35,762 nucleotides of DNA from Akkermansia muciniphila (GTDB lineage Bacteria; Verrucomicrobiota; Verrucomicrobiia; Verrucomicrobiales; Akkermansiaceae), in contig CAMAQB010000031.1 of the NCBI GenBank assembly GCA_945860285.1, positions 1-35,762 of the forward strand, written 5' to 3'. The translations under genes were made by a program, and so were the position numbers. The notes beneath the pieces are model-generated. The model searched no databases, was not told where the DNA came from, and worked only from the letters and a program-made list of their open reading frames with translations. Below, piece by piece: positions 5,685-34,111 of this stretch (positions within the stretch are counted from its first letter, which is position 1; every line of letters starts with the position of its first letter).

Positions 5685-8072
5685 ATGCCAGCCAATCCTA
5701 TCAAACACCTGATCCTGTCCCTCTGCATCATCGCGGCAGGACTCTGCTCCGCCCAGCAAGAGGCACCTGAAGCCGCACAGGCGGATCTGGCCGATGGTCT
5801 GTACAATCGGGCCAAGAACCTCTACACCGCTGGCAACAGCAGCACCAACCTCGACCAGCGCGTGGCGTATTTCACCAAGGCCAGCGAGGTCTTCAAGGAT
5901 TTTCTCGACAAACACCCGCGCGATGCCAACGCCAAGGCTGCGGAATATTACTACGCCCTTTGCTTCTACAACACAGGCAACATCGAAAATGCGAAACGCA
6001 TTTTCTCGACGATCATCAACAACCAGCGCAACGGGCCGTACGTCGCCGCCGCCTGTTCGGTCATGGCCAGCGATGCCTTTGAAAAAAAGGACTACGCCAC
6101 CGCAGCGGTGCTGTACAGCAGGATGTCGGCCAACGCACAGCGCGGCACCGACCGCATGCGTGGATATTACTTCGAAGCCCTGTCCCAACATTACCGGGGC
6201 AAGGAGAAGGAGGCGTTGGCCGGATATCTCAAGGTCATTTCCGACCCCGAGGCGGCCACCAGTCCGCACCTGCATCTGTGTCGCAACGCCGCCGGAGCCC
6301 TGCTGCTGAAAATGGGCCAGCCCCGGGAGGCCCTGCCGTATTTTGAGGACGTGATCAAGACCCCCTCACCCGAGAACGCCAAGGCGGAAGCCACTTTATA
6401 CGCCGGCATCACCAGCCTGCAGTTGGAAGACGAAGCGGCTGCGGAAAAAAATTTCCAGTCGATCCTCAGCAATCGCAGCGATGAGTGGCGGACCTATCAT
6501 GCCGACGCGCTGACCTCAATCATGCAGATTCGTTTCAACAAGAAACAATACGCAGAGGTGGTCCAGATCTACGCCTCCAACCCCCTCAACTCGGGCGACG
6601 AACGCCAGGCGAAAAGAGCCAACGTCGCGGCGCGCTCCCACATGTTGCTGGGCCAGTACCTCGAAGCAATCCCGCTCTTTCTGGAGGTGCAGAAAACCGC
6701 TCCGGATTCCGACATCGCCTTCGATGCCTCCTACAACCGCCTGTTGTGCTTTTACAAGATCGACGGCAGACACATTGTCGAACAAGTGGACGCGTTCATT
6801 GAAATTTATGGCAAGTCGCAGAAAAACCATCCCCGCATCCATGCGGCGCGGATGATGAAGGCCGGGGCGCTGCAAAACGAAGGCAAGATCAAAGAGGCGG
6901 CGGAAACGTACAATCTCATCGACAGCACTCTCATCGCAGAAAGCAACCGCGCCAATCTCCTCTACCAGCGCGGCTGGTGCCTTGCCAACGCCGATGACCA
7001 CCAAGGGGCGATCCGATCTTTTACAAAATTCGTGGAGGAATACCCTGCGGACAAACGCACGGCCGAAGCGATCGCACTGCGCGGCGAATCGTATTTGGAA
7101 ACATCGGACCGTGATGCCGCACTCAAGGACTTCAACACGCTCATCGGACTCAATCCCGGCCCGAAACTCGCTGCCTTCGCCTGGCAGAAGTCCGCGGTGG
7201 TGAAGAAACTGGGCAACGACCTGCCGGGCATGATTGATTGCTACAGCAAACTACTGGAAAAATTCAAGGATCTGCCCACTGAAACGGTGGCGAACGCGGA
7301 ATTCTACATCGGCTACGGACTCAACAAGCAAAACAACAACAAAGAGGCCATTGCCCATCTGGAAAAAGCCCGCGAACTCGACAGCAAGACCTACGGGAAA
7401 CGCGCCGGACTCCTATTGATCAGTTGCTATTTCCAACTTGAGCAAATCGACCTGTTGTGCAAAGAGATCGACGGTGCCATCGACTCGGGCTATTCCGACA
7501 AGATCTCCCCTGCCCTGGTTTCCTGGGCTGGCGTTCAGTCACTGGGCATGAAAAAAGCCGAACAGGCGGCGCGATTTTTCCTGCTGATCGCCAATCCCGA
7601 GGAGCCTCGCGGCACACCGCGGGATGTCTGGCGCCACCTCGGCAAAGCATTGATCCTCTGCAAGGATTACAAACGCGCGCTGCCGGCCATCGAAAACGTT
7701 CTCGCCGTGGAGGACAACCCACTTGCCAAGGCCGATGCCCTGCTCGACCAGGGTCGCTGCCATCTGGCTCTCAAGGACCTGCCCAAGGCCCGCAAGTCCA
7801 TCGAGGAGTGTTTCGCGCTGAAACCCCAGGGTGCTTTGGAAGCCGAGGCCAGCATTCTCTTCGGCGACCTTTGCATGGCCGAAGGCAGCCCCGCGAAGGC
7901 CAAGGAAAAATACGCCGGTGTTGCGGTATTGATCGAAGATGCCCGCCTCAAACCACTCGCGATCTCGCGCTTGATTGTGGCGCTGGAAACATTGAAAGAC
8001 GAGACTACTGCGGCCAAATACCGCAAGGAACTCGCTGAAAAATTCCCCAACTGGCATGATGACAGCCTCTGA
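5685..8072 (+). CDS. Periplasmic tetratricopeptide-repeat protein of the exbBD operon
   Basis: The protein has about 795 residues. The N-terminus MPANPIKHLILSLCIIAAGL followed by CSAQQ is a signal peptide; the LCSA end is not a clean lipobox. The rest is helical repeats of TPR type, for example RVAYFTKASEVFKDFLDKHP, EAIPLFLEVQKTAP, GAIRSFTKFVEEYPADKRT and EAIAHLEKARELD, covering nearly the whole length. Such TPR proteins often accompany ExbB/ExbD or Tol genes (YbgF/CpoB-like position) and probably scaffold envelope complexes. The frame is open from 5601, but that start overlaps exbD by 50 bp. The ATG at 5685 has AAGG 10 nt upstream and gives the signal peptide. The exact partner is unknown. 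Confidence 0.85.
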   Translation: MPANPIKHLILSLCIIAAGLCSAQQEAPEAAQADLADGLYNRAKNLYTAGNSSTNLDQRVAYFTKASEVFKDFLDKHPRDANAKAAEYYYALCFYNTGNIENAKRIFSTIINNQRNGPYVAAACSVMASDAFEKKDYATAAVLYSRMSANAQRGTDRMRGYYFEALSQHYRGKEKEALAGYLKVISDPEAATSPHLHLCRNAAGALLLKMGQPREALPYFEDVIKTPSPENAKAEATLYAGITSLQLEDEAAAEKNFQSILSNRSDEWRTYHADALTSIMQIRFNKKQYAEVVQIYASNPLNSGDERQAKRANVAARSHMLLGQYLEAIPLFLEVQKTAPDSDIAFDASYNRLLCFYKIDGRHIVEQVDAFIEIYGKSQKNHPRIHAARMMKAGALQNEGKIKEAAETYNLIDSTLIAESNRANLLYQRGWCLANADDHQGAIRSFTKFVEEYPADKRTAEAIALRGESYLETSDRDAALKDFNTLIGLNPGPKLAAFAWQKSAVVKKLGNDLPGMIDCYSKLLEKFKDLPTETVANAEFYIGYGLNKQNNNKEAIAHLEKARELDSKTYGKRAGLLLISCYFQLEQIDLLCKEIDGAIDSGYSDKISPALVSWAGVQSLGMKKAEQAARFFLLIANPEEPRGTPRDVWRHLGKALILCKDYKRALPAIENVLAVEDNPLAKADALLDQGRCHLALKDLPKARKSIEECFALKPQGALEAEASILFGDLCMAEGSPAKAKEKYAGVAVLIEDARLKPLAISRLIVALETLKDETTAAKYRKELAEKFPNWHDDSL

Positions 8073-8162
8073 GTACGGAAAATTTATTCCGCTTTGTTTA
8101 TCTTGTTCTTGTCGAATTTGAATTTTTTTTTAATTGTCGCGGCAGTTCTTAAGCAGAACAGG

Positions 8163-8639
8163 ATGGCGACCATTGATCCAGTTGAGAGACAAACGACCCG
8201 CACGCGTTCGATGCCCTATCGAGGCACGTTTTACGTTGCCACGATTTGGACTCTCGCCCACCTCTTCAGCATTGGCCTCACCGCGATCGCGTTGTTCCTG
8301 TTTTTACGTCATCACAAAGAGCCGCGATCCGTTTTCTACCTGTACAGCGTCATTGCGGGAGTCCTATTGGTGGCCATCACCATGCTGATTTCCTATTTCA
8401 CACGCCGCGATGCCCGCTGCCCGCTCTGCCGCGGCACACCGCTGAAAAACTCCGGCGCACTCGCTCACAAGAACTCCTTTTGCCTGAGACCGTTCAACCA
8501 CGGCTACTCCGCAGTGTTCAGCATTCTATTCACCCAGAAGCTCACTTGCATGTATTGCGGAACCAAATACGACCTGCTGAAGGAGCCGGGCAGACGGAGC
8601 CGCAAAGACAGCCAACGAAGCGACAGGCCTCCGCAATGA
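8163..8639 (+). CDS. Small two-helix membrane protein with CxxC pairs
   Basis: The protein has about 158 residues with two hydrophobic helices (about 22-47 and 57-78). A cytoplasmic tail follows, containing CPLC (Cys86, Cys89), Cys107 and CMYC (Cys129, Cys132), a spacing that could bind one zinc ion. The C-terminus is basic (GRRSRKDSQRSDRPP). I do not recognise a named family; it resembles lineage-specific verrucomicrobial membrane proteins. The start is uncertain: a TTG at 8094 and an ATG at 8211 are in frame. I chose the ATG at 8163, which keeps both helices. It follows the TPR gene by 90 bp without an obvious terminator, so it may be read through from the exbB operon. Confidence 0.55.
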   Translation: MATIDPVERQTTRTRSMPYRGTFYVATIWTLAHLFSIGLTAIALFLFLRHHKEPRSVFYLYSVIAGVLLVAITMLISYFTRRDARCPLCRGTPLKNSGALAHKNSFCLRPFNHGYSAVFSILFTQKLTCMYCGTKYDLLKEPGRRSRKDSQRSDRPPQ

Positions 8640-8815
8640 CTTCTGGAAACCGTGTCGGATGCCGCAGGCTTTCCCCAGTTGCCGACAGGAACTGCAGCAC
8701 CCGCGCGCCCGAAGCCGCTGTTTCGCCGCATCGCCATGCTAACGAAAAATAAAAATGCGCCTTTTGTGCAGCTAACATCTTTACGAAGCATGAAAACTGC
8801 GTTATTGATTTCCCC
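8640..8815 (+). other. Intergenic region before the Minf_1886-type gene
   Basis: 176 bp with no gene. A weak promoter-like pair TTTACG-17 nt-TATTGA ends 7 nt before the ATG at 8816. It resembles the leaderless promoters seen elsewhere in the window but matches consensus poorly. Confidence 0.3.
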
Positions 8816-9226
8816 ATGCAAGCACTGCCCTACGAGCATGCCATCGAATCGATCGTGAAACGCGACCCGCGCTTCAATCCTGGCGCCTACATTTTCCTGA
8901 AGGAGGCGCTTGATTTCACTTTGCAACAGGTCAATGATGCCAACCAAACCAAGCCGCGCCACGTTAGCGGTGCAGAACTGCTGTTTGGTTTCCGCGATCT
9001 CGCATTGCAGCAGTTTGGTCCGATGGCCATCACCCTGCTGAGTGAATGGGGCATTCAGAGCACGGCGGATGTCGGTGACATGGTGTTCCTGTTGATCGAG
9101 GAACAGGTCTTCGGCAAACAAGAGTCGGACAGCAAGGAGGATTTTGCCGATGTGTTCACGTTTCAGCAGGCCTTTGCGGATCCATTTCTGCCAAGTGCCA
9201 CCAACACCTTGTCCCACAAGGCTTGA
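8816..9226 (+). CDS. Minf_1886 family protein (conserved, unknown function)
   Basis: The protein has 136 residues. It matches the family as I remember it: an N-terminal IVKRDPRFNPGAYIFLKEAL segment, then HVSGAELLFGFRDLALQQFG and MAITLLSEWGI, then DVGDMVFLLIEEQVFGKQES. The family is named after a Methylacidiphilum infernorum gene and is found across Verrucomicrobia and Planctomycetes; its function is not known. The start agrees with the family's short N-terminus. It ends 6 bp before holB, so the two are cotranscribed, which suggests but does not prove a role near replication. There are no membrane segments and no signal peptide, so it is cytoplasmic. Confidence 0.8.
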   Translation: MQALPYEHAIESIVKRDPRFNPGAYIFLKEALDFTLQQVNDANQTKPRHVSGAELLFGFRDLALQQFGPMAITLLSEWGIQSTADVGDMVFLLIEEQVFGKQESDSKEDFADVFTFQQAFADPFLPSATNTLSHKA

Positions 9227-9232
9227 GCAGCG

Positions 9233-10240
9233 ATGGCCTATTCCGCAGAGCGCGCTTATGAACACATCGCCACGGCACACCGGCACGGTCGGCTTGCGCA
9301 CGCGCTGTTGATCTCCGGATCGGACGGAGCGGGAAAATCAAACCTGGCGGCTAAAATTTCCTGGCTGCTGCAAGGCAAGGCCACCCAGGGAATGGATCTC
9401 CTCGGCGAGTCGATCAGCCAAGAAGCTCCGCCCCTCGAGGAACAGGAATGCGATGCTGTGCAGGTCGTTCGACCCGAAAAACTCTCGCGGATCGTCAACG
9501 TCGACCGCATCCGCGAGGTGGAGGATCGCCTGCACAAAGCATCGGGAAAAAACGTCTGGAAAATCGTCGTAATTGTCCATGCCGATCGCACGAATCCCCA
9601 GGCCCAGAATGCCTTTCTCAAAACGCTGGAAGAACCACCGAACAACACGATCCTAATGTTGCTCACATCCCAGCCGCAATCCCTGCTGCCGACAATCCTA
9701 TCGCGCTGTTTGCAACTGCCGCTGATGGGCAAAACCGACTACCGCGCGCATGGCGGACAAGAATTGATCCAGACACTCAACCGGGTGGCGTCGGCAAGTT
9801 TCGGCACGCCATGGGGCGCATTGACGATCAAGAACGCCTTCACACAGGTGATCGAGCGCCGAAAAGCGGAACTGGAAACCCACGAGGATCAACTCTACGC
9901 CGCGGAAAAAAAACACTACGCGCAAAGCACGGATGGCCGCTGGTTGAAGGATCGCGAGGACTTTCACAAAGCCGCCTCGCGCTCCGCTTATCTCGCGGAA
10001 CGATCGCGGTTTTTCGACATCCTCATGGCATGGATGGCCGATGCCCTTCGTTATCAAAGCGGCGCCCCATGTGAGGACTTTCCCGAGGTGGCACACCTGA
10101 TCGAGAAAATTTCCCTAACGGAAAACATCAGTACGATGCTGTCGCGCGTCGAGGCGCTGGAGGATCTTCGCGCCACTCTGGAAACAAACGCCCAGGAACA
10201 AATGGCTGTCGAATCAGCCTTTCTCAAGGCGTTTGGTTAG
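9233..10240 (+). CDS. holB: DNA polymerase III delta' subunit (clamp-loader ATPase homologue)
   Basis: Delta' is part of the clamp loader that places the beta clamp on primed DNA. The 335-residue protein has a P-loop GSDGAGKS (29-36), RIREVEDRL, the hallmark AQNAFLKTLEEPPNNTILML segment and an SRC sensor motif within LLPTILSRCLQLPL. The P-loop is intact, as in the gamma/tau subunit, whereas Proteobacterial delta' has lost it. The usual zinc module (CxxC...HPD) of the family is missing here: only QECDAVQVVRPEK is present in its place. The gene follows the Minf_1886-type gene by 6 bp. Its TAG stop overlaps the TAA stop of the convergent oxidoreductase gene within TTAG. Confidence 0.85.
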   Translation: MAYSAERAYEHIATAHRHGRLAHALLISGSDGAGKSNLAAKISWLLQGKATQGMDLLGESISQEAPPLEEQECDAVQVVRPEKLSRIVNVDRIREVEDRLHKASGKNVWKIVVIVHADRTNPQAQNAFLKTLEEPPNNTILMLLTSQPQSLLPTILSRCLQLPLMGKTDYRAHGGQELIQTLNRVASASFGTPWGALTIKNAFTQVIERRKAELETHEDQLYAAEKKHYAQSTDGRWLKDREDFHKAASRSAYLAERSRFFDILMAWMADALRYQSGAPCEDFPEVAHLIEKISLTENISTMLSRVEALEDLRATLETNAQEQMAVESAFLKAFG

Positions 10241-11166
10241 ACCGACTCCATGCCCAGTCGCGCCAGCTCGGTGACCTTGAGCGCCAGTTCCAGTGCGGCC
10301 ATACCCTGTTGACCCGTCACTGTCGGTGTCTCACCCCGGGAGACGGCATCGACAAAGGATCGCAACTCCATCATCAGCGGCTCGCCCTTGTCGATCTCCA
10401 CATCGAATTTCACAATGCCGGAGGAGTCCTTCCCATACATCTGGCCTTCCTGGGCCTGGTAATCCAGCGACAAATAACAGTCCTCCTGGAACACCCGGAT
10501 TTTCCTCATTCTTTCAGGACTGATGCGGCTGGCGGTGACGTTGGCCACGCAGCCGTTTTCAAACCGCAGCCGCGCGTTGGCGATGTCTTCAGTGGCGGTC
10601 AGGACCGAAACCCCGACGGCATCGATTCCCACCACCGGACTTTTGACCAGATGTAGGATGACTTCCAAATCGTGGATCATCAAATCAAGGATCACGCCGA
10701 TGTCCATGCTGCGGTTGGGAAATGGCGAGAGCCGGTGTGCTTCGATGAAGCGCGGTCGGGTCAACTTCGACTCCAACTGGCTGAGCACCGGGTTGAAGCG
10801 CTCGACATGGCCGACGGCAAGAAGTTTTTCACAGCGCCGGGCCGTGTCCACCAGCGCGCGCGCGTCGGCGACATGGGCTGCAATCGGTTTTTCCATCAGC
10901 ACATGTACGCCGTGATCGAGCAGAAAACAACCGACTTCGCAATGTGCGACGGTCGGCACCGCCACGCTGGCAAGGTCCACCAGCGAAGCCAGTTCTTCGA
11001 GCGACGCCACCGCTCTGCCACCAAACTCAGCAGCAACCGCTTGCGCTCGGGAAAAATCAGCATCGTGAATGGCGACCAGTTCCACTCCCGTCAGCAGGGA
11101 GTAAATGCGCGCATGATTTCTTCCCATCGATCCAGCCCCCGCCACTCCCGCTTTGATGATTGCCAT
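10237..11166 (-). CDS. Gfo/Idh/MocA family NAD(P)-dependent oxidoreductase
   Basis: Members oxidise or reduce sugar or inositol carbons using a nicotinamide cofactor. The 309-residue protein begins with a Rossmann motif (GVAGAGSMGRNHARI, 7-21), has the EKP motif at 92-94 (LMEKPIAAH) with the catalytic-region lysine, GHVERFNP at about 119-126, and MIHDLEVIL with His165-Asp166. GHxERFNP is typical of the UDP-sugar 3-dehydrogenase-like members, so a nucleotide-sugar substrate for envelope polysaccharide is plausible, but no lpx or glycan gene is adjacent to support it. It is cytoplasmic, with no signal peptide. The gene is monocistronic as far as visible, with its own leaderless-type promoter. 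Confidence 0.85.
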   Translation of the reverse strand: MAIIKAGVAGAGSMGRNHARIYSLLTGVELVAIHDADFSRAQAVAAEFGGRAVASLEELASLVDLASVAVPTVAHCEVGCFLLDHGVHVLMEKPIAAHVADARALVDTARRCEKLLAVGHVERFNPVLSQLESKLTRPRFIEAHRLSPFPNRSMDIGVILDLMIHDLEVILHLVKSPVVGIDAVGVSVLTATEDIANARLRFENGCVANVTASRISPERMRKIRVFQEDCYLSLDYQAQEGQMYGKDSSGIVKFDVEIDKGEPLMMELRSFVDAVSRGETPTVTGQQGMAALELALKVTELARLGMESV

Positions 11167-11172
11167 GCCGCA

Positions 11173-11201
11173 TCGTTACTCCGCAGGCGAAATGATGGCA
11201 A
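11173..11201 (-). promoter_or_regulatory. Promoter of the Gfo/Idh/MocA gene (leaderless type)
   Basis: On the minus strand TTGCCA (11196-11201), a 17-nt spacer and TAACGA (11173-11178) lie exactly 6 nt before the ATG at 11166. Confidence 0.45.
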
Positions 11202-11223
11202 GCATTGCTTGCCACGGCGTCAG

Positions 11224-13368
<2,145 letters not shown>

Positions 13369-13379
13369 TTTGTTCCGCA

Positions 13380-13407
13380 ACTATGCCTGCTTTTCGAAGT
13401 GCCGCAA
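13380..13407 (-). promoter_or_regulatory. Promoter of uvrB
   Basis: On the minus strand TTGCGG (13402-13407), a 16-nt spacer and CATAGT (13380-13385) lie 11 nt before the ATG at 13368. This predicts a leader of only about four nucleotides. The -10 box is weak (4 of 6). I see no LexA-type box. Confidence 0.35.
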
Positions 13408-13451
13408 TGGAAATTTACCCGCAGCGGGTTCACCGCCGTCATCTTTTCGCT

Positions 13452-13479
13452 TTGCTTGGCCTGGATATTCCGCTACCTT
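13452..13479 (+). promoter_or_regulatory. Promoter of the amidase-ykgJ pair (leaderless type)
   Basis: TTGCTT (13452-13457), a 16-nt spacer and TACCTT (13474-13479) lie exactly 6 nt before the GTG at 13486. This supports the GTG as the true start although no Shine-Dalgarno sequence precedes it. Confidence 0.42.
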
Positions 13480-13485
13480 TCTTTC

Positions 13486-14223
13486 GTGAGAAAAATCATT
13501 CTTTCCACACCTTTGCTGGTGACAGGCATTGCCATTCTGAGCGTCTGCTGTTCACCGGTGGCACCGATTCGCGGAGGCAACGACCGCGCCATCGAGTGGG
13601 CCAATCGCAACGGCGGGGCTTCTTCATCCGGGTCGGGCGGTGCGTCCATGGGTACGCTGGTGCGACAAATCAACCTCAAACAGGACATGGTTCGTGCGGG
13701 CACCTGCGGTCGCCGGGTGGTGCGGCGGATGAATCCCCGCTATATCACGATTCACAGCACCCAGAACTACAGTGCCGATGCGTGGAAACATTCGCTGGCG
13801 CTGAAACGTGGCGCGCTGCGCGCGCCGAAACGACCCGGCGGCAACCGCATCGGTTATCTGATCTGGCATTTCACCGTGGACGACAAGGTCGCCTTGCAAC
13901 ACATGCCCACCAACGAACAGGGCGAGCACGCCGACTTCAACGGCCCGGGCAATAATTACAGCATCGGCATTGAGATGTGCGAGCACCGCGGCAGCAACCT
14001 TAGCGCAACGATGGACCGCACCGCCAAGCTCGCCGCCTATCTGATGGTCAAGAACGGCATCCCGCTGCGCAATGTCGTTCCGCACTACCACTGGCCCCGC
14101 CGCGGCGCTCATCCACCTAACAAAAACTGCCCGCATTTTCTCATGGACAACGGCAGACCGGGACGCAAGTGGAATGCGTTCCTCGGCAAGATCAACTACT
14201 ATTACGCTCGGATGCGTGGCTGA
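13486..14223 (+). CDS. N-acetylmuramoyl-L-alanine amidase (Amidase_2 fold), exported
   Basis: Amidase_2 enzymes are zinc hydrolases that cut the bond between MurNAc and the L-alanine of the peptide stem. The 245-residue protein starts (GTG) with MRKIILSTPLLVTGIAIL then SVCCSPVAP, an export signal; the cysteine pair could be lipidated but the box is not canonical. Zinc ligands are seen as ITIHST (His90), VVPHYHW (His200) and NKNCPHFL (Cys215), with a catalytic-type glutamate in SIGIEMCE (Glu163). The frame is open much further upstream, but that part is antisense to uvrB. Its TGA overlaps the next ATG by one base, so the cysteine-cluster gene is translationally coupled to it. It probably acts in cell-wall turnover. 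Confidence 0.88.
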   Translation: MRKIILSTPLLVTGIAILSVCCSPVAPIRGGNDRAIEWANRNGGASSSGSGGASMGTLVRQINLKQDMVRAGTCGRRVVRRMNPRYITIHSTQNYSADAWKHSLALKRGALRAPKRPGGNRIGYLIWHFTVDDKVALQHMPTNEQGEHADFNGPGNNYSIGIEMCEHRGSNLSATMDRTAKLAAYLMVKNGIPLRNVVPHYHWPRRGAHPPNKNCPHFLMDNGRPGRKWNAFLGKINYYYARMRG

Positions 14224-14624
14224 TGAAAGCTCCCCCCTCCCACGGCAGCCCCGGCAACCGCAACGTGGATCTCGATCCCGATCGTTTTTATGTCTGCCAG
14301 CGCTGCACCGCCTGCTGCAAGTGGCCCGGCGATGTCAGAATCGAGGAAGACGAAATCGCACGCATCGCCGGCTTCCTGAACCTAACAGAAGTTGCTTTTA
14401 TGGAGCGCTACACCCGGCTGCGCGGCAACCGCCAGGGCTTGTCATTGATCGAAAAAGCCAATCACGAGTGCATCATGCTTGAAGGAAATTCCTGCCTCAT
14501 TCACCCGGTGAAGCCGGAGCAATGCCGGGGTTTTCCCAACAAATGGAACTTCCCGGGCTGGCGGCAGGTTTGCGAGGCCGTGCCGATTCCCATGGCCGAG
14601 GCAACTGACCGGGGACTAGTCTGA
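14223..14624 (+). CDS. YkgJ-family cysteine-cluster protein
   Basis: The protein has 133 residues and eight cysteines: YVCQRCTACCKWPGD (Cys25, 28, 31, 32), Cys83, NSCLIHPVKPEQCRGFP (Cys91, Cys101) and Cys117. This is the pattern of the YkgJ / Fe-S oxidoreductase-like family (CxxCxxCC...C.IY..RP..CR.FP), thought to bind zinc or an iron-sulfur cluster. Its biochemical role is not established. The ATG overlaps the amidase stop as TGATG, so it is translated with the amidase. An alternative ATG at 14169 lies inside the amidase and is unlikely. It has no signal peptide, so it should stay in the cytoplasm. Confidence 0.85.
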   Translation: MKAPPSHGSPGNRNVDLDPDRFYVCQRCTACCKWPGDVRIEEDEIARIAGFLNLTEVAFMERYTRLRGNRQGLSLIEKANHECIMLEGNSCLIHPVKPEQCRGFPNKWNFPGWRQVCEAVPIPMAEATDRGLV

Positions 14625-19684: not shown

Positions 19685-20580
19685 TCATCCACTCCCAGCA
19701 ACTCGAGGATGCGCTGCAGATCGTCGTTGCCGTAGTATTCGATCTCGATGCGGCCTTTTTTCGGCGCATGGGAGATGCTGACCTGGGTGGCGAAAAGCCC
19801 GCGCAGACGGTTTTCCAAATCCTGGATGTGGGTTTGCACATCTCTCGTGGCGGATGTGCCGGATTTTTTGCCCGTTTCGGCGGGTGGATTGAGGATGCCC
19901 TGCACCAGTTTTTCGGTGGCTCTCACCGTGAGTGATTTGCGCAATACCTGATCGGACGCCAGCAATTGCGTCGGCAGGTCCTTGATGGCCAGCAAGGCCT
20001 TGGCGTGCCCCACACTGACCCGTCCCTGGGCGACCTGCAGTTGCACATCGGCGTGCAAGTCCAGCAGTCGCATCGCATTGGCGACACTGGCGCGGGATTT
20101 GCCGACGCGCGAGGCGATTTCCTCCTGCTTCAACGCGTATTCACGGGCAAGCCGGACATAACCAGCGGCTTCATCCATCGGATTCAAATCCTGACGCTGC
20201 AGGTTTTCGATCAGCGCCATTTCCAAAACATCGCGATCCGATGCCTCGCGTTCGATCACCGGCACGGTATCGAGCCCGAGTTTTTGCGAGGCGCGCCAGC
20301 GGCGTTCGCCAGCGATGAGTTCCAATTTGTCGCCGACGCGGCGCACGATCAGCGGCTGGATGATGCCGTGTTGACGGATCGACTCCATCAGCTCCTCGAG
20401 CGGTGCTTCGAAAAAATGCTTGCGCGGCTGCAGCGGGCTGGGAATGACAGATGCAATCGGTGCATCGCGCACCAGCTTTCTCTCATCAGGGGAAATCGTA
20501 GCCTCCAGAATGGAATGAGCGCCCTGCTGTTTTTTGATCAGTGCTCCGAGTCCTTTGCCTAATGCAGGTTTATTCGCCAT
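19681..20580 (-). CDS. parB: ParB/RepB/Spo0J chromosome-partitioning protein
   Basis: ParB binds parS sites, loads as a CTP-dependent clamp and directs segregation with ParA. The 299-residue protein has the N-terminal ParA-contact motif LGKGLGALI (7-15), the CTP-binding box IAGERRWRA (89-97), ENLQRQDLNPMDEA (about 125-138) and a helix-turn-helix at about 151-175 (KQEEIASRVGKSRASVANAM). A C-terminal dimerisation tail follows. Length and motifs are those of a chromosomal ParB. No parA is in the window, and I saw no parS-like TGTTTCACGTGAAACA sequence. The gene heads an operon with the glutaminyl cyclase and M14 genes, joined by ATGA and TGATG overlaps. Confidence 0.95.
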   Translation of the reverse strand: MANKPALGKGLGALIKKQQGAHSILEATISPDERKLVRDAPIASVIPSPLQPRKHFFEAPLEELMESIRQHGIIQPLIVRRVGDKLELIAGERRWRASQKLGLDTVPVIEREASDRDVLEMALIENLQRQDLNPMDEAAGYVRLAREYALKQEEIASRVGKSRASVANAMRLLDLHADVQLQVAQGRVSVGHAKALLAIKDLPTQLLASDQVLRKSLTVRATEKLVQGILNPPAETGKKSGTSATRDVQTHIQDLENRLRGLFATQVSISHAPKKGRIEIEYYGNDDLQRILELLGVDE

Positions 20581-28257: not shown

Positions 28258-31200
28258 CTACTTGAGCAAATCGGAAACCTGATAGAAACTCGGTTGGTCT
28301 TTGGTGGCCGCGCGGATTTTCTGCACCGCTTGTGGCGTGACAGGATCGGCCTTGTTGCCGAATGCATTGCGCGTGAAGGTGAGGACATCGGCCAACTCCT
28401 CATCGCTGAGAAACTTGAACGGCGTCATCGGCACAGCCCCGGTGTATTTCACACCCTTGACCTCGATCGGACCGACAAGTCCATGCAGGGCAATGCGGAT
28501 CAAGCGGGTTTCGTCGCCCTGTATCCACTCACTTCCGGCCAAAGGCGGGAACTGCGCTTCGGGCAGTCCGTTGCCGTCCTTCTGATGGCAGGTTCCGCAA
28601 TGACCGTCGCGCAGATACACCTGCGAACCGCGGAGGAATTGCTCTTTTGCCGCACCGGTCAAATGCGTTTCAAACACCGGCGGCGGCTCGGCCTTGATCT
28701 GCTGGCCGTTGAGGAAATCGTTCGCGGTTTTGTAAACCGGCGAGATCCATTTGTCCATTGGGTCGCCATTGCTTCCCTTGTATGCCGCGGCGGCTTCCAA
28801 CACACTGCGCCCGGCGGCATTTTCCAGCCACGAGGCGGCGACGATGGCTTCCAGCCTCACCCGACCATTTTCATCGGCAGCGGCGGTTTTCAGCAGTTCG
28901 GTTTGATTGGCGATCAAATGGCCGTTGTAACGCAGGGCTCTAACAGCTGCGGCGCGGGCATGAGGGTCTTTAGCCTGGAGCAGAGTGCGCACCAGCGGCT
29001 CGCTCAGTTGATTGTTTCCCCACAGAACCCACAGGGCTTCGACCAAGTTATGCTCGTAGTTCACGGCGGATTTGTCCATTCCCTGGACCCACTTTTTCAC
29101 GCCGGCCACAACTTCGGCATCGTTTCTGCCACGCAGTTCACGGCGGGTGCGATAGCGGGTGCGATACTCGGGGAGTTCCAGATTTTTGCACAACTCGTCA
29201 ATGGAGGCACCGGCGACCCTGGCAGGTTTGACCAGCGGACGGGACGGATAGGTGATGCGGAAAACGCGACCGTGGGTGTGATCGCGGTTCGGATCGCGGG
29301 CGCTGTGCTGCATGTGGCCGATCAGGGCATTGTGCCAATCCACGAGATACAGCGAACCATCGGGCGCGAATTCCATGTCGACAGGTCGGAAATGCGGATC
29401 GGAGCCCTTCACCAAATCCTGACGAAAGGTGCTGACGTAACCGGTGCCGTCATCCTTCATCGTATGTTGCTTGGTTCCTTGAAAACCGATGGTGTTGTTG
29501 ATCAACAGATCGCCCTGCACTTCATCCGGGAAATGACGGCTGGAGATGAATTCCAGACCCGCCGTGGGACGCACTTGCACCGACAACAGATTCGGTGGCG
29601 TTGGATTGAAGCTGCCCAGTGGCACCTGCACCGACCCCTGAAGCATCCATCGTACGGGTGGATCCGAGGTGTCCGAAAAGAAATCCTGACCCCAGTGATC
29701 GAAGGCGATGCCCCAGGGATTGGGAATGGAAAGTCGCACGGTCCTCTCCAGGTGACGACGTTCCGGATTGTATCGAAAGAAACCTCCGTTGGAACTGCGG
29801 ACCGGGCCATAGGCGGTCTCCACGTGACTGCGCAAAAACGTGCCCTCGCCCATCAAGATTGCCCCGGAAGGATCGGCACAGAATGCAGAGATCGCATGAT
29901 GGGTGTCATGGTCGTCAAAACCACTCATCACGATGTCGCGCGCATCCGCTTTGTCGTCACCATTGGTATCCTGCAAAAAGATCAAAGAGGTCCCCTGCGC
30001 CACATAGACGCCGTCGTGCGAAAACTCGAAGCCCATCGGCAGGTGCAACTTGTCTGCAAAGATGGTTTGCTTGTCCGCGCGACCGTCATTATTGGTGTCT
30101 TCCAAAATGAGCAGCTTGTCGTTCGGCATCGGGTCACCGGGCCGGTAATGCGGATAGACCGGCATCGTCGCCACCCACAACCGGCCTTTGTTGTCGAACG
30201 ACAACTGCACGGGATTCGCGAGATCGGGGAACTTGCTCTCGTCGGCAAACACTTCGATTTTATACCCTTCGGGCACTGCCAGGGTTTTCAACGACTCTTC
30301 GCTGGAAAGGTACTTGATGTTCTTGTTCGCTTCGCCGATGGACGGCAGTGCCTCCGTCTTGGCATCGGCGGCCGCGACATCGAACCTCCCGCCTGCCGCA
30401 ATCGCCCAGATCGCCTGCTCGCGGTTGTTCACCATCTGCTCGAGCTTGCGTAACTCCGCTGGGTAGTTTTGCGAACCGAACGGATCGCGCCGCCGACCAT
30501 AAACGTGCACGCCATTGGGAATTTTGTAATAACTCACCCACATCCACGCGAAGTCATCGACCGCCTTTTTGAGGTCGGCCTCGCTCGCCTTCGACACGGG
30601 CTTGCGTTTGCCGAAAAGTTGATCAATCAGCACCGGTGCCAGCTTCGCATAACCTTCGTCGGTCAACAATGCACCGTCGCGGGTCAGCGGTTTGCTGCCC
30701 TTGGCGAACCAGGCACTGGTGGGCGCGAAAAGGTTCACGAAAGTCAACTGGTGCGCAGCGGCCACATCTTCGATCGCCTTCGAATACAAAGCCAGATTCG
30801 CATTCTGCGTGTAGCCGTTGGGAGTGCCGTAGAGCGCCGACACATCCTGAAACGCAGTGGGCGATACCAGCGCCAGCTTGGGAGCACTCTTGTCATTGTA
30901 TTTCTGATTCAACGTGTGCGCGATGAATGCCTCAAGTTCTGCTTTGAAGTTGGGCAATCCGAGCGGGCCTTCGAACGATTCATTGAATCCGAAAAAAGCG
31001 ACAATGATGTCCGGCTTTATTTGTTTCAACCAGGCATCGGGCTCGGGGTAGCTGCCGTCGCCGGAGTTGCCGCCCCAATTGTCATTGGCCTCCACCAAGG
31101 TGCGGAATTTTTCCCCACCGGGAAAGGCCCACGGGTTCTTGCGTCCGGCGTTGGGGCGAAAGGCGGGGGTGTCGCCTTCATCACACAGGTTGCGAATCAC

Positions 31201-31410
31201 CAGATGATGCCCGGGATAGCGACGGTGCATCTCGGTCTCGAAATGCCCGAAGCGCAGCATGCGCGATCCCAGCCCGTTGCCCAACAGCACGACGCGGGCG
31301 TCCTTTTGCAATTCCAGTTCCGCCGAATGCGCCATCGGCAGCAGCAGTGGGATCACAGCCATCAGCAGCGAGACACCTCGCGCTCTCGTTTTTATCGACT
31401 TCGGATTCAT
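28258..31410 (-). CDS. Secreted PVC-type heme-binding protein: SGNH-like + beta-propeller dehydrogenase-like + HEAT-like + cytochrome c
   Basis: The protein has 1050 residues. A signal peptide is at about 1-29 (VIPLLLPMAHSAE). An SGNH/GDSL-like domain (about 35-280) has VVLLGNGLGSRM and FFGFNESFEG, but the GDS serine box reads GNGLGS and the usual D..H near LLTDEGYAKL lacks the histidine, so hydrolase activity is doubtful. Next is a propeller of the 'membrane-bound dehydrogenase' type (about 390-760: VPEGYKIEVFAD, NDGRADKQTIFADKL, DTNGDDKADARD, GSLYLVDWHNALIGH). HEAT-like helices (about 790-890) follow, then a c-type cytochrome with CGTCH (938-942) and a possible axial Met in GAVPMTPF. Such fusions are characteristic of Planctomycetes and Verrucomicrobia; electron donor and substrate are unknown. 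Upstream starts to 31581 lack a signal peptide. Confidence 0.88.
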   Translation of the reverse strand: MNPKSIKTRARGVSLLMAVIPLLLPMAHSAELELQKDARVVLLGNGLGSRMLRFGHFETEMHRRYPGHHLVIRNLCDEGDTPAFRPNAGRKNPWAFPGGEKFRTLVEANDNWGGNSGDGSYPEPDAWLKQIKPDIIVAFFGFNESFEGPLGLPNFKAELEAFIAHTLNQKYNDKSAPKLALVSPTAFQDVSALYGTPNGYTQNANLALYSKAIEDVAAAHQLTFVNLFAPTSAWFAKGSKPLTRDGALLTDEGYAKLAPVLIDQLFGKRKPVSKASEADLKKAVDDFAWMWVSYYKIPNGVHVYGRRRDPFGSQNYPAELRKLEQMVNNREQAIWAIAAGGRFDVAAADAKTEALPSIGEANKNIKYLSSEESLKTLAVPEGYKIEVFADESKFPDLANPVQLSFDNKGRLWVATMPVYPHYRPGDPMPNDKLLILEDTNNDGRADKQTIFADKLHLPMGFEFSHDGVYVAQGTSLIFLQDTNGDDKADARDIVMSGFDDHDTHHAISAFCADPSGAILMGEGTFLRSHVETAYGPVRSSNGGFFRYNPERRHLERTVRLSIPNPWGIAFDHWGQDFFSDTSDPPVRWMLQGSVQVPLGSFNPTPPNLLSVQVRPTAGLEFISSRHFPDEVQGDLLINNTIGFQGTKQHTMKDDGTGYVSTFRQDLVKGSDPHFRPVDMEFAPDGSLYLVDWHNALIGHMQHSARDPNRDHTHGRVFRITYPSRPLVKPARVAGASIDELCKNLELPEYRTRYRTRRELRGRNDAEVVAGVKKWVQGMDKSAVNYEHNLVEALWVLWGNNQLSEPLVRTLLQAKDPHARAAAVRALRYNGHLIANQTELLKTAAADENGRVRLEAIVAASWLENAAGRSVLEAAAAYKGSNGDPMDKWISPVYKTANDFLNGQQIKAEPPPVFETHLTGAAKEQFLRGSQVYLRDGHCGTCHQKDGNGLPEAQFPPLAGSEWIQGDETRLIRIALHGLVGPIEVKGVKYTGAVPMTPFKFLSDEELADVLTFTRNAFGNKADPVTPQAVQKIRAATKDQPSFYQVSDLLK

Positions 31411-31846
31411 TTGATTTTGAGAATTTCTTTCCATTTCATGCAACAGCAACATCCCCTCACAAGAACGCGCCCGCCATTCGCGAATGATTACCGCGCACGG
31501 AACCGAATTCTTGCGGGTTTTGCGCATGCGGTCAACAACCGTGTCGCGCCATTCCATGCGGATTTTCCCGCACCTGAGCAACGGCTGAATCGGGAAAACT
31601 ACGCAAACCTTTTTAAAACAGAGGATTCAGACAATCGTGCGGGATGCAGGGGTCGACCCGTAGCAGTCAGACGAACAGGCGGCATCATTGCTAAGGACGT
31701 TCTCGACGGGCAGTCTCATAACTCCCAAAAGTACAGCACACATCCCTCGGCAAGTTTTGGTCACTTTGTCGGGCGATTTTTCGTGTCTAGCTTACAGACG
31801 AAGCTACGTCTCGCCCTCAAACGTTTTCATCCATGTCTTCAGTTCG
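31411..31846. other. Intergenic region containing a degenerate tRNA 3'-end copy
   Basis: 436 bp between two minus-strand genes. The recognisable item is the 23-bp tRNA-Val-like segment at 31637-31659. I see no clear promoter for the cytochrome gene and no other gene. Confidence 0.4.
31637..31659 (-). repeat. Degenerate copy of the tRNA-Val 3' end (possible attachment site remnant)
   Basis: Aligned with 33170-33192 (T-arm, acceptor strand and first bases of ACCA of the tRNA), 20 of 23 positions are identical, in the same orientation. The copy lies 1.5 kb beyond the 3' end of the intact tRNA, the position expected of a distal att site after integration into a tRNA gene. Confidence 0.4.
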
Positions 31847-32977
31847 TCAGATGCGATCACCCTTGGCCCCATTGCACCGGCGACAAAGGAGTTGAATGTT
31901 GTTTATCGTATTTGATCCTCCCTTCGCCACTGGGATTATATGATCGAACTCAATATAGTCACCGCTTCCGCACTCTACGCACTGTCCGCCATCCCGAATC
32001 CATACGGCGTTCCTTGTCTCCTTACTGACAAGGCGACGATCCTGCCGGGTGTCGCCATCCATAGTGATGTTTGCCGTTCTATTTCCCGCCCGCATCAAGC
32101 AGAGAATTAACTCTGCACAGACGCCGGGTTCTGAGATGCAGAAAACCCGGATGCCTCTCTTTGAGGATGTGAGATTCAAAAATGCCCCGCGATGGTTTGC
32201 CATACGGATGCTTTTCATAGGGAGGGAAACAGATGCTTTAGGCGCTACAAATTCTACTCTGGTGGATGTTACCCACAGATCACCTGATGAAACAATTTTC
32301 GAATCCTTGATGAAATCTGCCTGAGATCGCAAATAGACAGCTTCTCCGCTGACTAGCCATGCGGGAGCTAGTTGGAGGGATTTGGGAAGAATGTTCGCTC
32401 TTAGCGCGGAAATTTTTCTAACTCTTTGAATGACAGAATCCACTTCCTGTAACATTTCCTGTAGCCCAAAAAGCTGAATATGATAATGGATTTGGGTTTC
32501 TTCTTGTGCGGTCAACTCTGAATCGGAGATCGCATCCGCAAGAAGGTGGCGTATGAACTTCGTTGCGATTGGCTGACACTCGGAAACTACGTTTTGCCAT
32601 TTCTCTCCGGCCTCCTCCACCATCTGTCGCAAGACCTGTAGTTCGGAGTCATTCAATTCTCCATCCTCCAGCATAGCAGCGAGGGTAGTTGAAAATCGGC
32701 TTTTCAGTGTTGCCTTCTTATAGCTCGTTGCGGCGAATCCAGCGAGACCAGCACCAGCCTTTGCCAGCATTCCAGCAGTCTTTCCAGCCAACTCTCTTAC
32801 TTTTGCCGCTCCGTGCAGCGGCGATAATAAGTCACTGACTGTAACCCACTTTGGCAATCCCTCATGCCATGCGTGCCAATCCAAGGAAACAGTTCCCGCC
32901 TTTACTGCGGCAGATATCTCATCAAGGGATTCAGCGCTAAAGCGGAGTCCTGTGGGGGATTGAATGCTGTATTCCAT
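31847..32977 (-). CDS. HNH endonuclease-domain protein with GYF2-like, TerB-like and PH-like regions
   Basis: The protein has 376 residues. Residues 1-52 (MEYSIQSPTGLRFSAESLDE, then HEGLPKWVTVSDLL) resemble a GYF_2 domain. A Gly/Ala-rich, possibly membrane-touching segment is at 62-86. Residues 95-185 have two acidic helical units (AMLEDGELNDSELQVLRQMV and DAISDSELTAQEETQI) like TerB. Residues 205-260 (WLVSGEAVYLRSQADFI, DLWVTSTRVEFVAP) look like a bacterial PH/GRAM-type domain. The end is an HNH nuclease: CVECGSGD (Cys333, Cys336), FDHIIPVAKGG (Asp345, His346), then NNIQLLCRRCNGAKGDR. GC content is visibly lower than in neighbours (about 45 versus 57 percent in sampled lines), suggesting transfer. 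It may be a defence or island nuclease; the role is not known. Confidence 0.75.
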   Translation of the reverse strand: MEYSIQSPTGLRFSAESLDEISAAVKAGTVSLDWHAWHEGLPKWVTVSDLLSPLHGAAKVRELAGKTAGMLAKAGAGLAGFAATSYKKATLKSRFSTTLAAMLEDGELNDSELQVLRQMVEEAGEKWQNVVSECQPIATKFIRHLLADAISDSELTAQEETQIHYHIQLFGLQEMLQEVDSVIQRVRKISALRANILPKSLQLAPAWLVSGEAVYLRSQADFIKDSKIVSSGDLWVTSTRVEFVAPKASVSLPMKSIRMANHRGAFLNLTSSKRGIRVFCISEPGVCAELILCLMRAGNRTANITMDGDTRQDRRLVSKETRNAVWIRDGGQCVECGSGDYIEFDHIIPVAKGGSNTINNIQLLCRRCNGAKGDRI

Positions 32978-33167
32978 AACTAACTACTAGGAATTTGCTT
33001 TTGCATTATTGCGGGTGAACTAGTGGCAGTATCGCGGAAAGTGTTCCCCGGCATCGGCAGAACGCTGAAAAGAGGATTTTTTAGTAATGCAGACTTTATT
33101 GCACAGTTGCACTTTTGAAATGTCATGTAAAACCGTGAAACTCTTATGGAATAAAGGATTCCGGCGA

Positions 33168-33242
33168 TGGTGCGCGATGCAGGGTTCGAACCTGCGACCC
33201 CATCCGTGTGAAGGATGTGCTCTACCACTGAGCTAATCGCGC
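33168..33242 (-). tRNA. tRNA-Val (anticodon CAC), CCA encoded
   Basis: On the minus strand the acceptor GCGCGAT pairs perfectly with ATCGCGC. The D arm is GCTC..GAGC, the anticodon stem CATCC/GGATG encloses loop TTCACAC, the variable region is GGGTC, and the T arm GCAGG-TTCGAAC-CCTGC is perfect. With U33 followed by CAC, it reads GTG valine codons. Discriminator A and CCA are encoded. It reads toward the HNH gene. Confidence 0.95.
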
Positions 33243-33316: not shown

Positions 33317-34111
33317 TCAGACCCGTCGCGGCCGGTTGGCCATGATCAAGCGAATCAATGCCAGCGGAACGAGCGATATGCCCGCCGCTACCAAGGCGAC
33401 TTTCAAGCCAGGAAAGATGCGTGCACGGTCCAGATCCATGGCGCGGATCGACTCGGCGACACATTGTTCCTTGGGGATGCAAAACCACTCGCGCACGCCC
33501 TTGATTTGCTCGCCCTCGGTGCGCGCCGCTGCTTTGCCAAAGCCGGTGTGCACCGGTCCGGGGCAAACGGAAAGCACGGCAATATTCTGCTCGCGAAGTT
33601 CGATGCGCAGGGCCTCGGAGAAACTGGAAACGTAGGCCTTGGTAGCTGCATAAATCGCCAGGTCGGGCATCGGCACGAGGCTGGCGATAGAACTGACATT
33701 CACAACGACACCGCTCGATCGTTCGATCATTTTCGGCAGGAACAGATGAATCAAATGGGTGAGCCCTTCCATGTTCAACCGCAACATGTTTTCCACCCGC
33801 GTCCATTCGGCATCGGCAAAGGTACCGTAGTCCCCCACCCCGGCGTTGTTGATCAGGCAATCGGGCACCAGTGATTTTTCCTCCAGTGCCGCAGCGAGTT
33901 GCAGGCGTTGCCCGACATCGGCGAGGTCCGCTTGAAAGCAATGAACCTCAATGCCGTTTCGACGGATCAATTCAGCAGCAAGCACCGACAGCAGATCGCC
34001 GCGCCGCGCCACGAGAACCATCGTCCGACAACGGTGCGCCAGTTGACGGGCAAACTCCTCGCCCAACCCGGATGAGGCTCCGGTGACCAGCAGGCAATCA
34101 AATTTTTTCAC
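33317..34111 (-). CDS. Short-chain dehydrogenase/reductase (SDR)
   Basis: The protein has 264 residues of classical SDR type. The cofactor motif is TGASSGLG (10-17), NNAG is at 88-91, and the catalytic Ser (VNVSS, about 140) is followed by YAATK (Tyr154, Lys158). After the active site comes CPGPVHTGF. VARR after the second strand suggests NADPH preference. The C-terminus has a hydrophobic stretch (VALVAAGISLVPLALIRLIM) that may anchor it to the membrane, as in DltE/YqjQ-like members. The start codon is GTG at 34111. It lies 54 bp after the DUF6941-like gene on the same strand, so the two may be cotranscribed. The substrate cannot be deduced. Confidence 0.9.
   Translation of the reverse strand: MKKFDCLLVTGASSGLGEEFARQLAHRCRTMVLVARRGDLLSVLAAELIRRNGIEVHCFQADLADVGQRLQLAAALEEKSLVPDCLINNAGVGDYGTFADAEWTRVENMLRLNMEGLTHLIHLFLPKMIERSSGVVVNVSSIASLVPMPDLAIYAATKAYVSSFSEALRIELREQNIAVLSVCPGPVHTGFGKAAARTEGEQIKGVREWFCIPKEQCVAESIRAMDLDRARIFPGLKVALVAAGISLVPLALIRLIMANRPRRV

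What the first reader, a model, noticed from the sequence alone, without database searches (positions are those of the whole stretch)
31637..33242. Small putative island between tRNA-Val(CAC) and a degenerate copy of its 3' end
The intact tRNA-Val ends at 33168 on the minus strand. 1.5 kb further in its reading direction a 23-bp segment matches its T-arm/acceptor end at 20 of 23 positions in the same orientation. That is the geometry left by integration into a tRNA 3' end. The enclosed block holds one low-GC gene, the HNH protein, and no integrase. This suggests a decayed or minimal integrated element.
Basis: partly seen in the sequence, partly recalled or inferred. Interest (0 to 1): 0.68.

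Follow-up and report, generated by a model that had tools for sequence, protein, structure and literature searches.

The report
One-gene remnant island beside tRNA-Val
A foreign-looking gene for a multi-domain DNA-cutting protein sits between a valine tRNA gene and a worn duplicate of that tRNA's end; most likely it is the last cargo gene of an old mobile island that has lost its integration machinery, an ordinary kind of genome scar with an unusual cargo protein.

Summary
The 23-bp match is part of a 55-bp direct repeat, 41/55 identical, running from the T-arm of tRNA-Val(CAC) to 30 bp past its 3' end (31605-31659 and 33138-33192). Its 34/43 core is the best among 10^8 same-strand pairs in the window. 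The enclosed 1.5 kb has the lowest GC and most deviant tetranucleotides here and holds one intact gene and no integrase. The full-length gene is in 1 of 10 genomes of its genus, 6 of 73 of a sister genus and no other genome sampled. A congener, G006, has a 7.9-kb satellite-like element at the same tRNA, flanked by exact 30-bp copies. Two of five other independent loci of the gene lie within 350 bp downstream of other tRNAs, same strand. The protein reads as GYF_2-like, TerB-like, PH-like, HNH. I favour an old, integrase-less island remnant (CIME-like) keeping one conflict-type nuclease gene. Not shown: an empty site (synteny in the genus is too low), excision, or any function. Elsewhere the same gene lacks tRNA-end copies, so the repeat is no fixed part of a mobile unit.

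The parts
33168..33242 (-). tRNA-Val(CAC), intact, encoded CCA; presumed integration target
   Evidence: ARAGORN, Rfam RF00005
33138..33192 (-). tRNA-side copy of the 55-bp direct repeat (25 nt of tRNA 3' end + 30 nt of 3' flank)
   Evidence: the repeat finder D1; 34/43 core
31605..31659 (-). Distal, degenerate copy of the repeat; putative far att site
31847..32977 (-). Intact 376-aa gene: GYF_2-like, TerB-like, PH-like, HNH nuclease; cargo
   Evidence: PF01844 1.5e-14; PH fold Z 12.8; homologues
32831..32929 (-). GYF_2-like segment (aa 17-49)
   Evidence: PF14237 18.4 bits, below its 25.8 cut-off; 23.9 bits in homologue L110, also below
32372..32725 (-). TerB-like helical segment (about aa 85-202)
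   Evidence: PADLOC PDC-S48 model 3.7e-6 over aa 85-202; TerB PF05099 is sub-threshold in homologues, 1.4e-4 in the Deinococcus one
32084..32380 (-). PH-like domain (aa 200-298)
   Evidence: AlphaFold2 model from 8 sequences, local pLDDT about 77-94; VIA-align Z 12.8, rmsd 2.5, 96 aligned to 5yqr
31853..31981 (-). HNH nuclease domain (aa 333-375), Cys pairs and DH...N motif conserved
   Evidence: PF01844 54.3 bits; invariant columns in 8-sequence alignment
33317..34111 (-). Short-chain dehydrogenase; conserved neighbour on the 5' side of tRNA-Val, the stable flank
   Evidence: Next to tRNA-Val in G001, G003, G004, G006, G008, G009

Best explanation
An old integrated element used the 3' end of tRNA-Val(CAC) as its attachment site and duplicated the tRNA end. 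It has since lost its integrase and all other genes except one cargo gene, leaving tRNA, cargo and a worn att copy: a CIME-like remnant. The cargo protein probably senses or docks through its GYF-, TerB- and PH-like parts and cuts DNA with its HNH domain, plausibly as a defence or stress nuclease. Shown: repeat, composition, intact gene, patchy distribution, an independent island at the same tRNA in a congener. Inferred: integrase-mediated origin, loss of the rest, nuclease role.
For: 55-bp repeat in the right orientation, starting inside the T-arm. Lowest GC and most deviant tetranucleotides of the window between the copies. The same tRNA carries a satellite-like element in G006 with exact 30-bp copies, a tyrosine integrase, and primase-like, AAA and terminase-small-like genes. 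The full-length gene is in 1/10 congeners, 6/73 of a sister genus, and none of the other genomes sampled in order and class. Homologues start 333 bp after tRNA-Ala (L107) and 258 bp after tRNA-Thr (L109), same strand; 190 bp here. Two of five independent other loci by chance: about 2e-4 to 1e-3, assuming tRNA-downstream zones fill 0.4-1% of a genome. HNH motifs are intact. Absence of an integrase fits decay: no relative of the G006 integrase is in the window's genome at E<=1e-10.
Against: No empty site could be shown. The repeat runs 30 bp past the tRNA, and the tRNA-side flank, not the far one, is closer to the flank beyond the G006 element (12/18 against 9/18); simple insertion predicts the far flank is the host's. 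Copies differ at 25%, so the event is old or they never were identical. In L107 the 205 bp downstream of the tRNA is shared with two genomes whose matching stretch lacks the gene (G316, G265), so there the gene seems to have entered past the tRNA, not at it. L093, L108, L110 and L111 have no tRNA beside the gene.
Confidence: 0.55

Rival explanations
1. The repeat is a relic of an earlier, unrelated element or of repeated turnover at this tRNA, and the HNH gene entered the gap later as a single gene by another route.
For: Homologues sit at unrelated sites with only the gene conserved: similarity stops at the gene ends against L093, and at the stop codon between L110 and L111. In L107 the gene lies past 205 bp of shared flank. 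The far flank of tRNA-Val differs among congeners.
Against: Composition shifts between the repeat copies as one block, and no better second boundary repeat was found.
Confidence: 0.27
2. Local duplication: a segment with the tRNA 3' end plus flank was copied 1.5 kb away by slippage, gene conversion or another non-integrase event, and no island is involved.
For: The duplicated segment includes 30 bp of non-tRNA flank, more than the tRNA end that G006's element duplicates.
Against: The repeat starts inside the T-arm and bounds a block of foreign composition with a patchily distributed gene.
Confidence: 0.15
3. The HNH protein itself directs insertion near tRNA genes, as a free-standing homing-type nuclease.
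For: Three independent loci lie 190-333 bp downstream of three different tRNAs, same strand.
Against: Four other genomes have the gene with no tRNA nearby; no shared target sequence was found at the boundaries; the multi-domain make-up is unlike minimal homing nucleases (own knowledge).
Confidence: 0.03

Closest known systems
CIME (cis-mobilizable element: decayed ICE/IME keeping attL and attR, as defined in PMC5704250)
   Same: Flanked by a duplicated target end, no integrase or transfer genes, one cargo gene
   Different: No related functional element or accretion seen here; repeat copies differ at 25%; mobilisation untested
Satellite-like element at the same tRNA in G006 (L078 6535-14531)
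   Same: Same tRNA-Val(CAC) target and geometry
   Different: 7.9 kb, own tyrosine integrase and replication genes, exact 30-bp copies, no HNH gene of this family
TerD-TerB-HNH protein of Deinococcus radiodurans (WP_162177623.1)
   Same: TerB-like to HNH part aligns over aa 95-376 at 28%
   Different: N-terminal TerD in place of the GYF_2-like part; no tRNA noted nearby (that gene table lists no RNA genes)
PADLOC candidate PDC-S48
   Same: Weak match over the TerB-like part
   Different: The HNH part is not covered; a candidate family only

Membership tests
CIME / decayed tRNA island | Flanking attL/attR-like direct repeats, one completing the tRNA 3' end | tested here: met
   55-bp repeat, 41/55, same orientation; degenerate on the far side
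CIME / decayed tRNA island | No integrase and no transfer genes inside | tested here: met
   Only the HNH gene is recognisable
CIME / decayed tRNA island | Presence/absence boundary coincides with the repeats (empty site) | tested here: inconclusive
   No congener keeps both flanks together
CIME / decayed tRNA island | Mobilised by an integrase in trans or by accretion | not testable with these tools
   Needs an excision assay; no G006-type integrase in the genome at E<=1e-10
Functional tRNA-integrating element (ICE, IME, prophage, satellite) | Encodes an integrase | tested here: not met
   None recognised between the repeats
HNH endonuclease superfamily | HNH domain with zinc Cys pairs and DH...N motif | tested here: met
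   PF01844 54.3 bits, above cut-off 21.4; residues invariant
TerB family (PF05099) | Match above the curated cut-off | tested here: inconclusive
   No listed match in the window protein; sub-threshold in homologues
GYF_2 (PF14237) | Match above the curated cut-off | tested here: not met
   18.4 bits against 25.8
Anti-phage defence system | Protection against phage | not testable with these tools
   Only weak matches to candidate models

The most novel reading that the evidence does not exclude
A one-gene mobile unit, a GYF/TerB/PH/HNH-type nuclease gene, is repeatedly delivered to the downstream side of different tRNA genes without its own integrase, either riding on satellite integrases or by cutting near tRNA genes itself.
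Probability: 0.08. Interest if true: 0.65.

Novelty: new member of a known kind. Interest (0 to 1): 0.34.

Why it matters
It shows how far a tRNA-borne island can shrink while keeping a working-looking cargo gene, and it points to a little-described family of TerB/PH/HNH proteins in Akkermansiaceae-type genomes and viral contigs. It also shows tRNA-Val(CAC) to be an integration site with an intact satellite-like element in a congener. As a mechanism it is ordinary.

Tried and rejected
Empty-site search in the genus: all ten genomes have the SDR gene, seven (window included) show it beside tRNA-Val, but the other side differs, so nothing could be concluded. Chance origin of the repeat: rejected. 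Copy from another tRNA: the other valine tRNA fits less well; Ala and Thr loci give only background scores. tRNA 3'-end copies beside the gene in L107 and L109: none. Shared integrase arm site: 'CCTAAAGTGTGACCTA' after tRNA-Ala in L107 resembles 'CACCTAAAGTGTCACCTA' in the G006 element, but G265 and G316 share the L107 flank without the gene and no integrase was noticed in 11.5 kb beyond it in G265; left as a lead. A 15-bp match to a stretch downstream of the gene in L093: treated as chance. First AlphaFold model from 3 sequences was poor (pLDDT 51); the 8-sequence model was used (pLDDT 74). Structure searches hit mainly the PH-like part; lack of hits for other parts says nothing. No full-length homologue in phage or plasmid records; five IMG/VR loci carry the TerB/PH/HNH part at about 30%. 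Literature on this architecture and on PDC-S48: nothing useful found.

Full report
What was checked. tRNA-Val(CAC) lies at 33168-33242 on the minus strand. The segment at 31637-31659 matches its 3' end at 20/23, and nothing else in the window comes close. Repeat finding extends this to a 55-bp direct repeat, 31605-31659 and 33138-33192, 75% identical and 1533 bp apart. It begins at the GG of the T-arm and runs 30 bp past the tRNA end. A scan of 10^8 same-strand pairs of 43-mers in the window puts this pair alone at 34/43. Chance is excluded.

The enclosed block. GC is 0.486 against 0.568 outside, the lowest of the 1.5-kb windows sampled, and its tetranucleotide usage is the most deviant. It holds one recognisable gene, 31847-32977 (-), 376 aa, ending in an HNH domain (PF01844, 54 bits). 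A PH-like fold is predicted for aa 200-298 (Z 12.8, rmsd 2.5, 96 residues). The part before it matches a defence-candidate model weakly (PDC-S48), and TerB itself matches weakly in homologues. The N-terminus resembles GYF_2 below the cut-off. Zinc and catalytic residues are invariant over eight sequences, so the gene looks intact and under selection (inference).

Relatives of the gene. Of 57 genomes searched first, only the window's own has the full protein; the rest match little more than the HNH domain. Wider searches found it in six of 73 genomes of a sister genus and, apart from HNH-domain matches, in no other genome of 387 sampled from the order and 384 from the class. L093 (Akkermansiaceae bin-0034, 75% identical) is very probably the G397:C137 locus, judged by contig number and position. 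More distant relatives lack the GYF-like part: Lentisphaerae L094, Deinococcus proteins fused to TerD, and five viral contigs.

Where relatives of the gene sit. In L107 it starts 333 bp after tRNA-Ala(GGC), in L109 258 bp after tRNA-Thr(TGT), here 190 bp after tRNA-Val, all on the tRNA's strand. L108, L110/L111 and L093 have no tRNA. Counting L110 and L111 as one event, two of five other loci are tRNA-proximal; with 0.4-1% of a genome lying in such zones (an assumption, tRNA numbers were not measured) chance is 2e-4 to 1e-3. Neither L107 nor L109 has a tRNA-end copy beyond the gene. In L107, 205 bp after the tRNA is shared with G316 and G265, whose matching stretches lack the gene, so the gene seems to have entered downstream of the tRNA; a dispersed sequence bounds its other side at 9111, leaving about 1.4 kb unique. 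In L109 a transposase-like repeat ends about 23 bp past the gene.

The tRNA-Val site in congeners. The SDR gene on the 5' side is beside the tRNA in six other genomes; the 3' side differs. In G006 an exact 30-bp copy of the tRNA end lies 7.9 kb away and the interval holds a tyrosine integrase, a primase-like protein, an AAA ATPase and a terminase-small-like protein: an intact satellite-like element (inference from gene content). So the tRNA is used as an integration site in this genus. The window's genome has no relative of that integrase at E<=1e-10.

Weighing. Repeat geometry, composition and site usage favour an old island remnant. Against a simple insertion: both copies carry similar flank, the tRNA-side flank is the one closer to G006's far flank (12/18 against 9/18), and the copies differ by a quarter. 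An att core longer than the tRNA end would reconcile this, but was not tested. The gene's habit of sitting elsewhere without tRNA copies means that the gene and the repeat may have separate histories; this is the main rival.

Verdict. Observation confirmed and extended. Interpretation partly supported: most likely a CIME-like remnant (definition from PMC5704250). The family of the cargo gene is the more interesting part.

Noticed in passing
L078 (G006:C6) 6535-14531: A 7.9-kb satellite-like element between exact 30-bp tRNA-Val copies: tyrosine integrase, primase-like protein with Toprim, AAA_25 ATPase, terminase-small-like protein.
   Followed up: partly
window 20450-20474 (+): A 19/25 match to the tRNA-Val 3' end in the opposite orientation, inside an ORF; includes a run of exact bases at its end, probably chance.
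   Followed up: no
L080 (G004:C7), downstream of tRNA-Val: ORFs that look like HsdR and HsdS suggest type I restriction genes beside tRNA-Val in another congener; judged by eye from translations.
   Followed up: no
window 28258-31410 (-): GDSL lipase, DUF7133, HEAT and cytochrome c fusion; orthologues at 77-79% DNA identity lie in other neighbourhoods in three congeners.
   Followed up: partly
L107 7543-7558, L124, L119, L078 near 14390: A motif like CCTAAAGTGTGACCTA recurs 40-80 bp after tRNA-Ala or tRNA-Val ends; possible integrase arm sites.
   Followed up: partly
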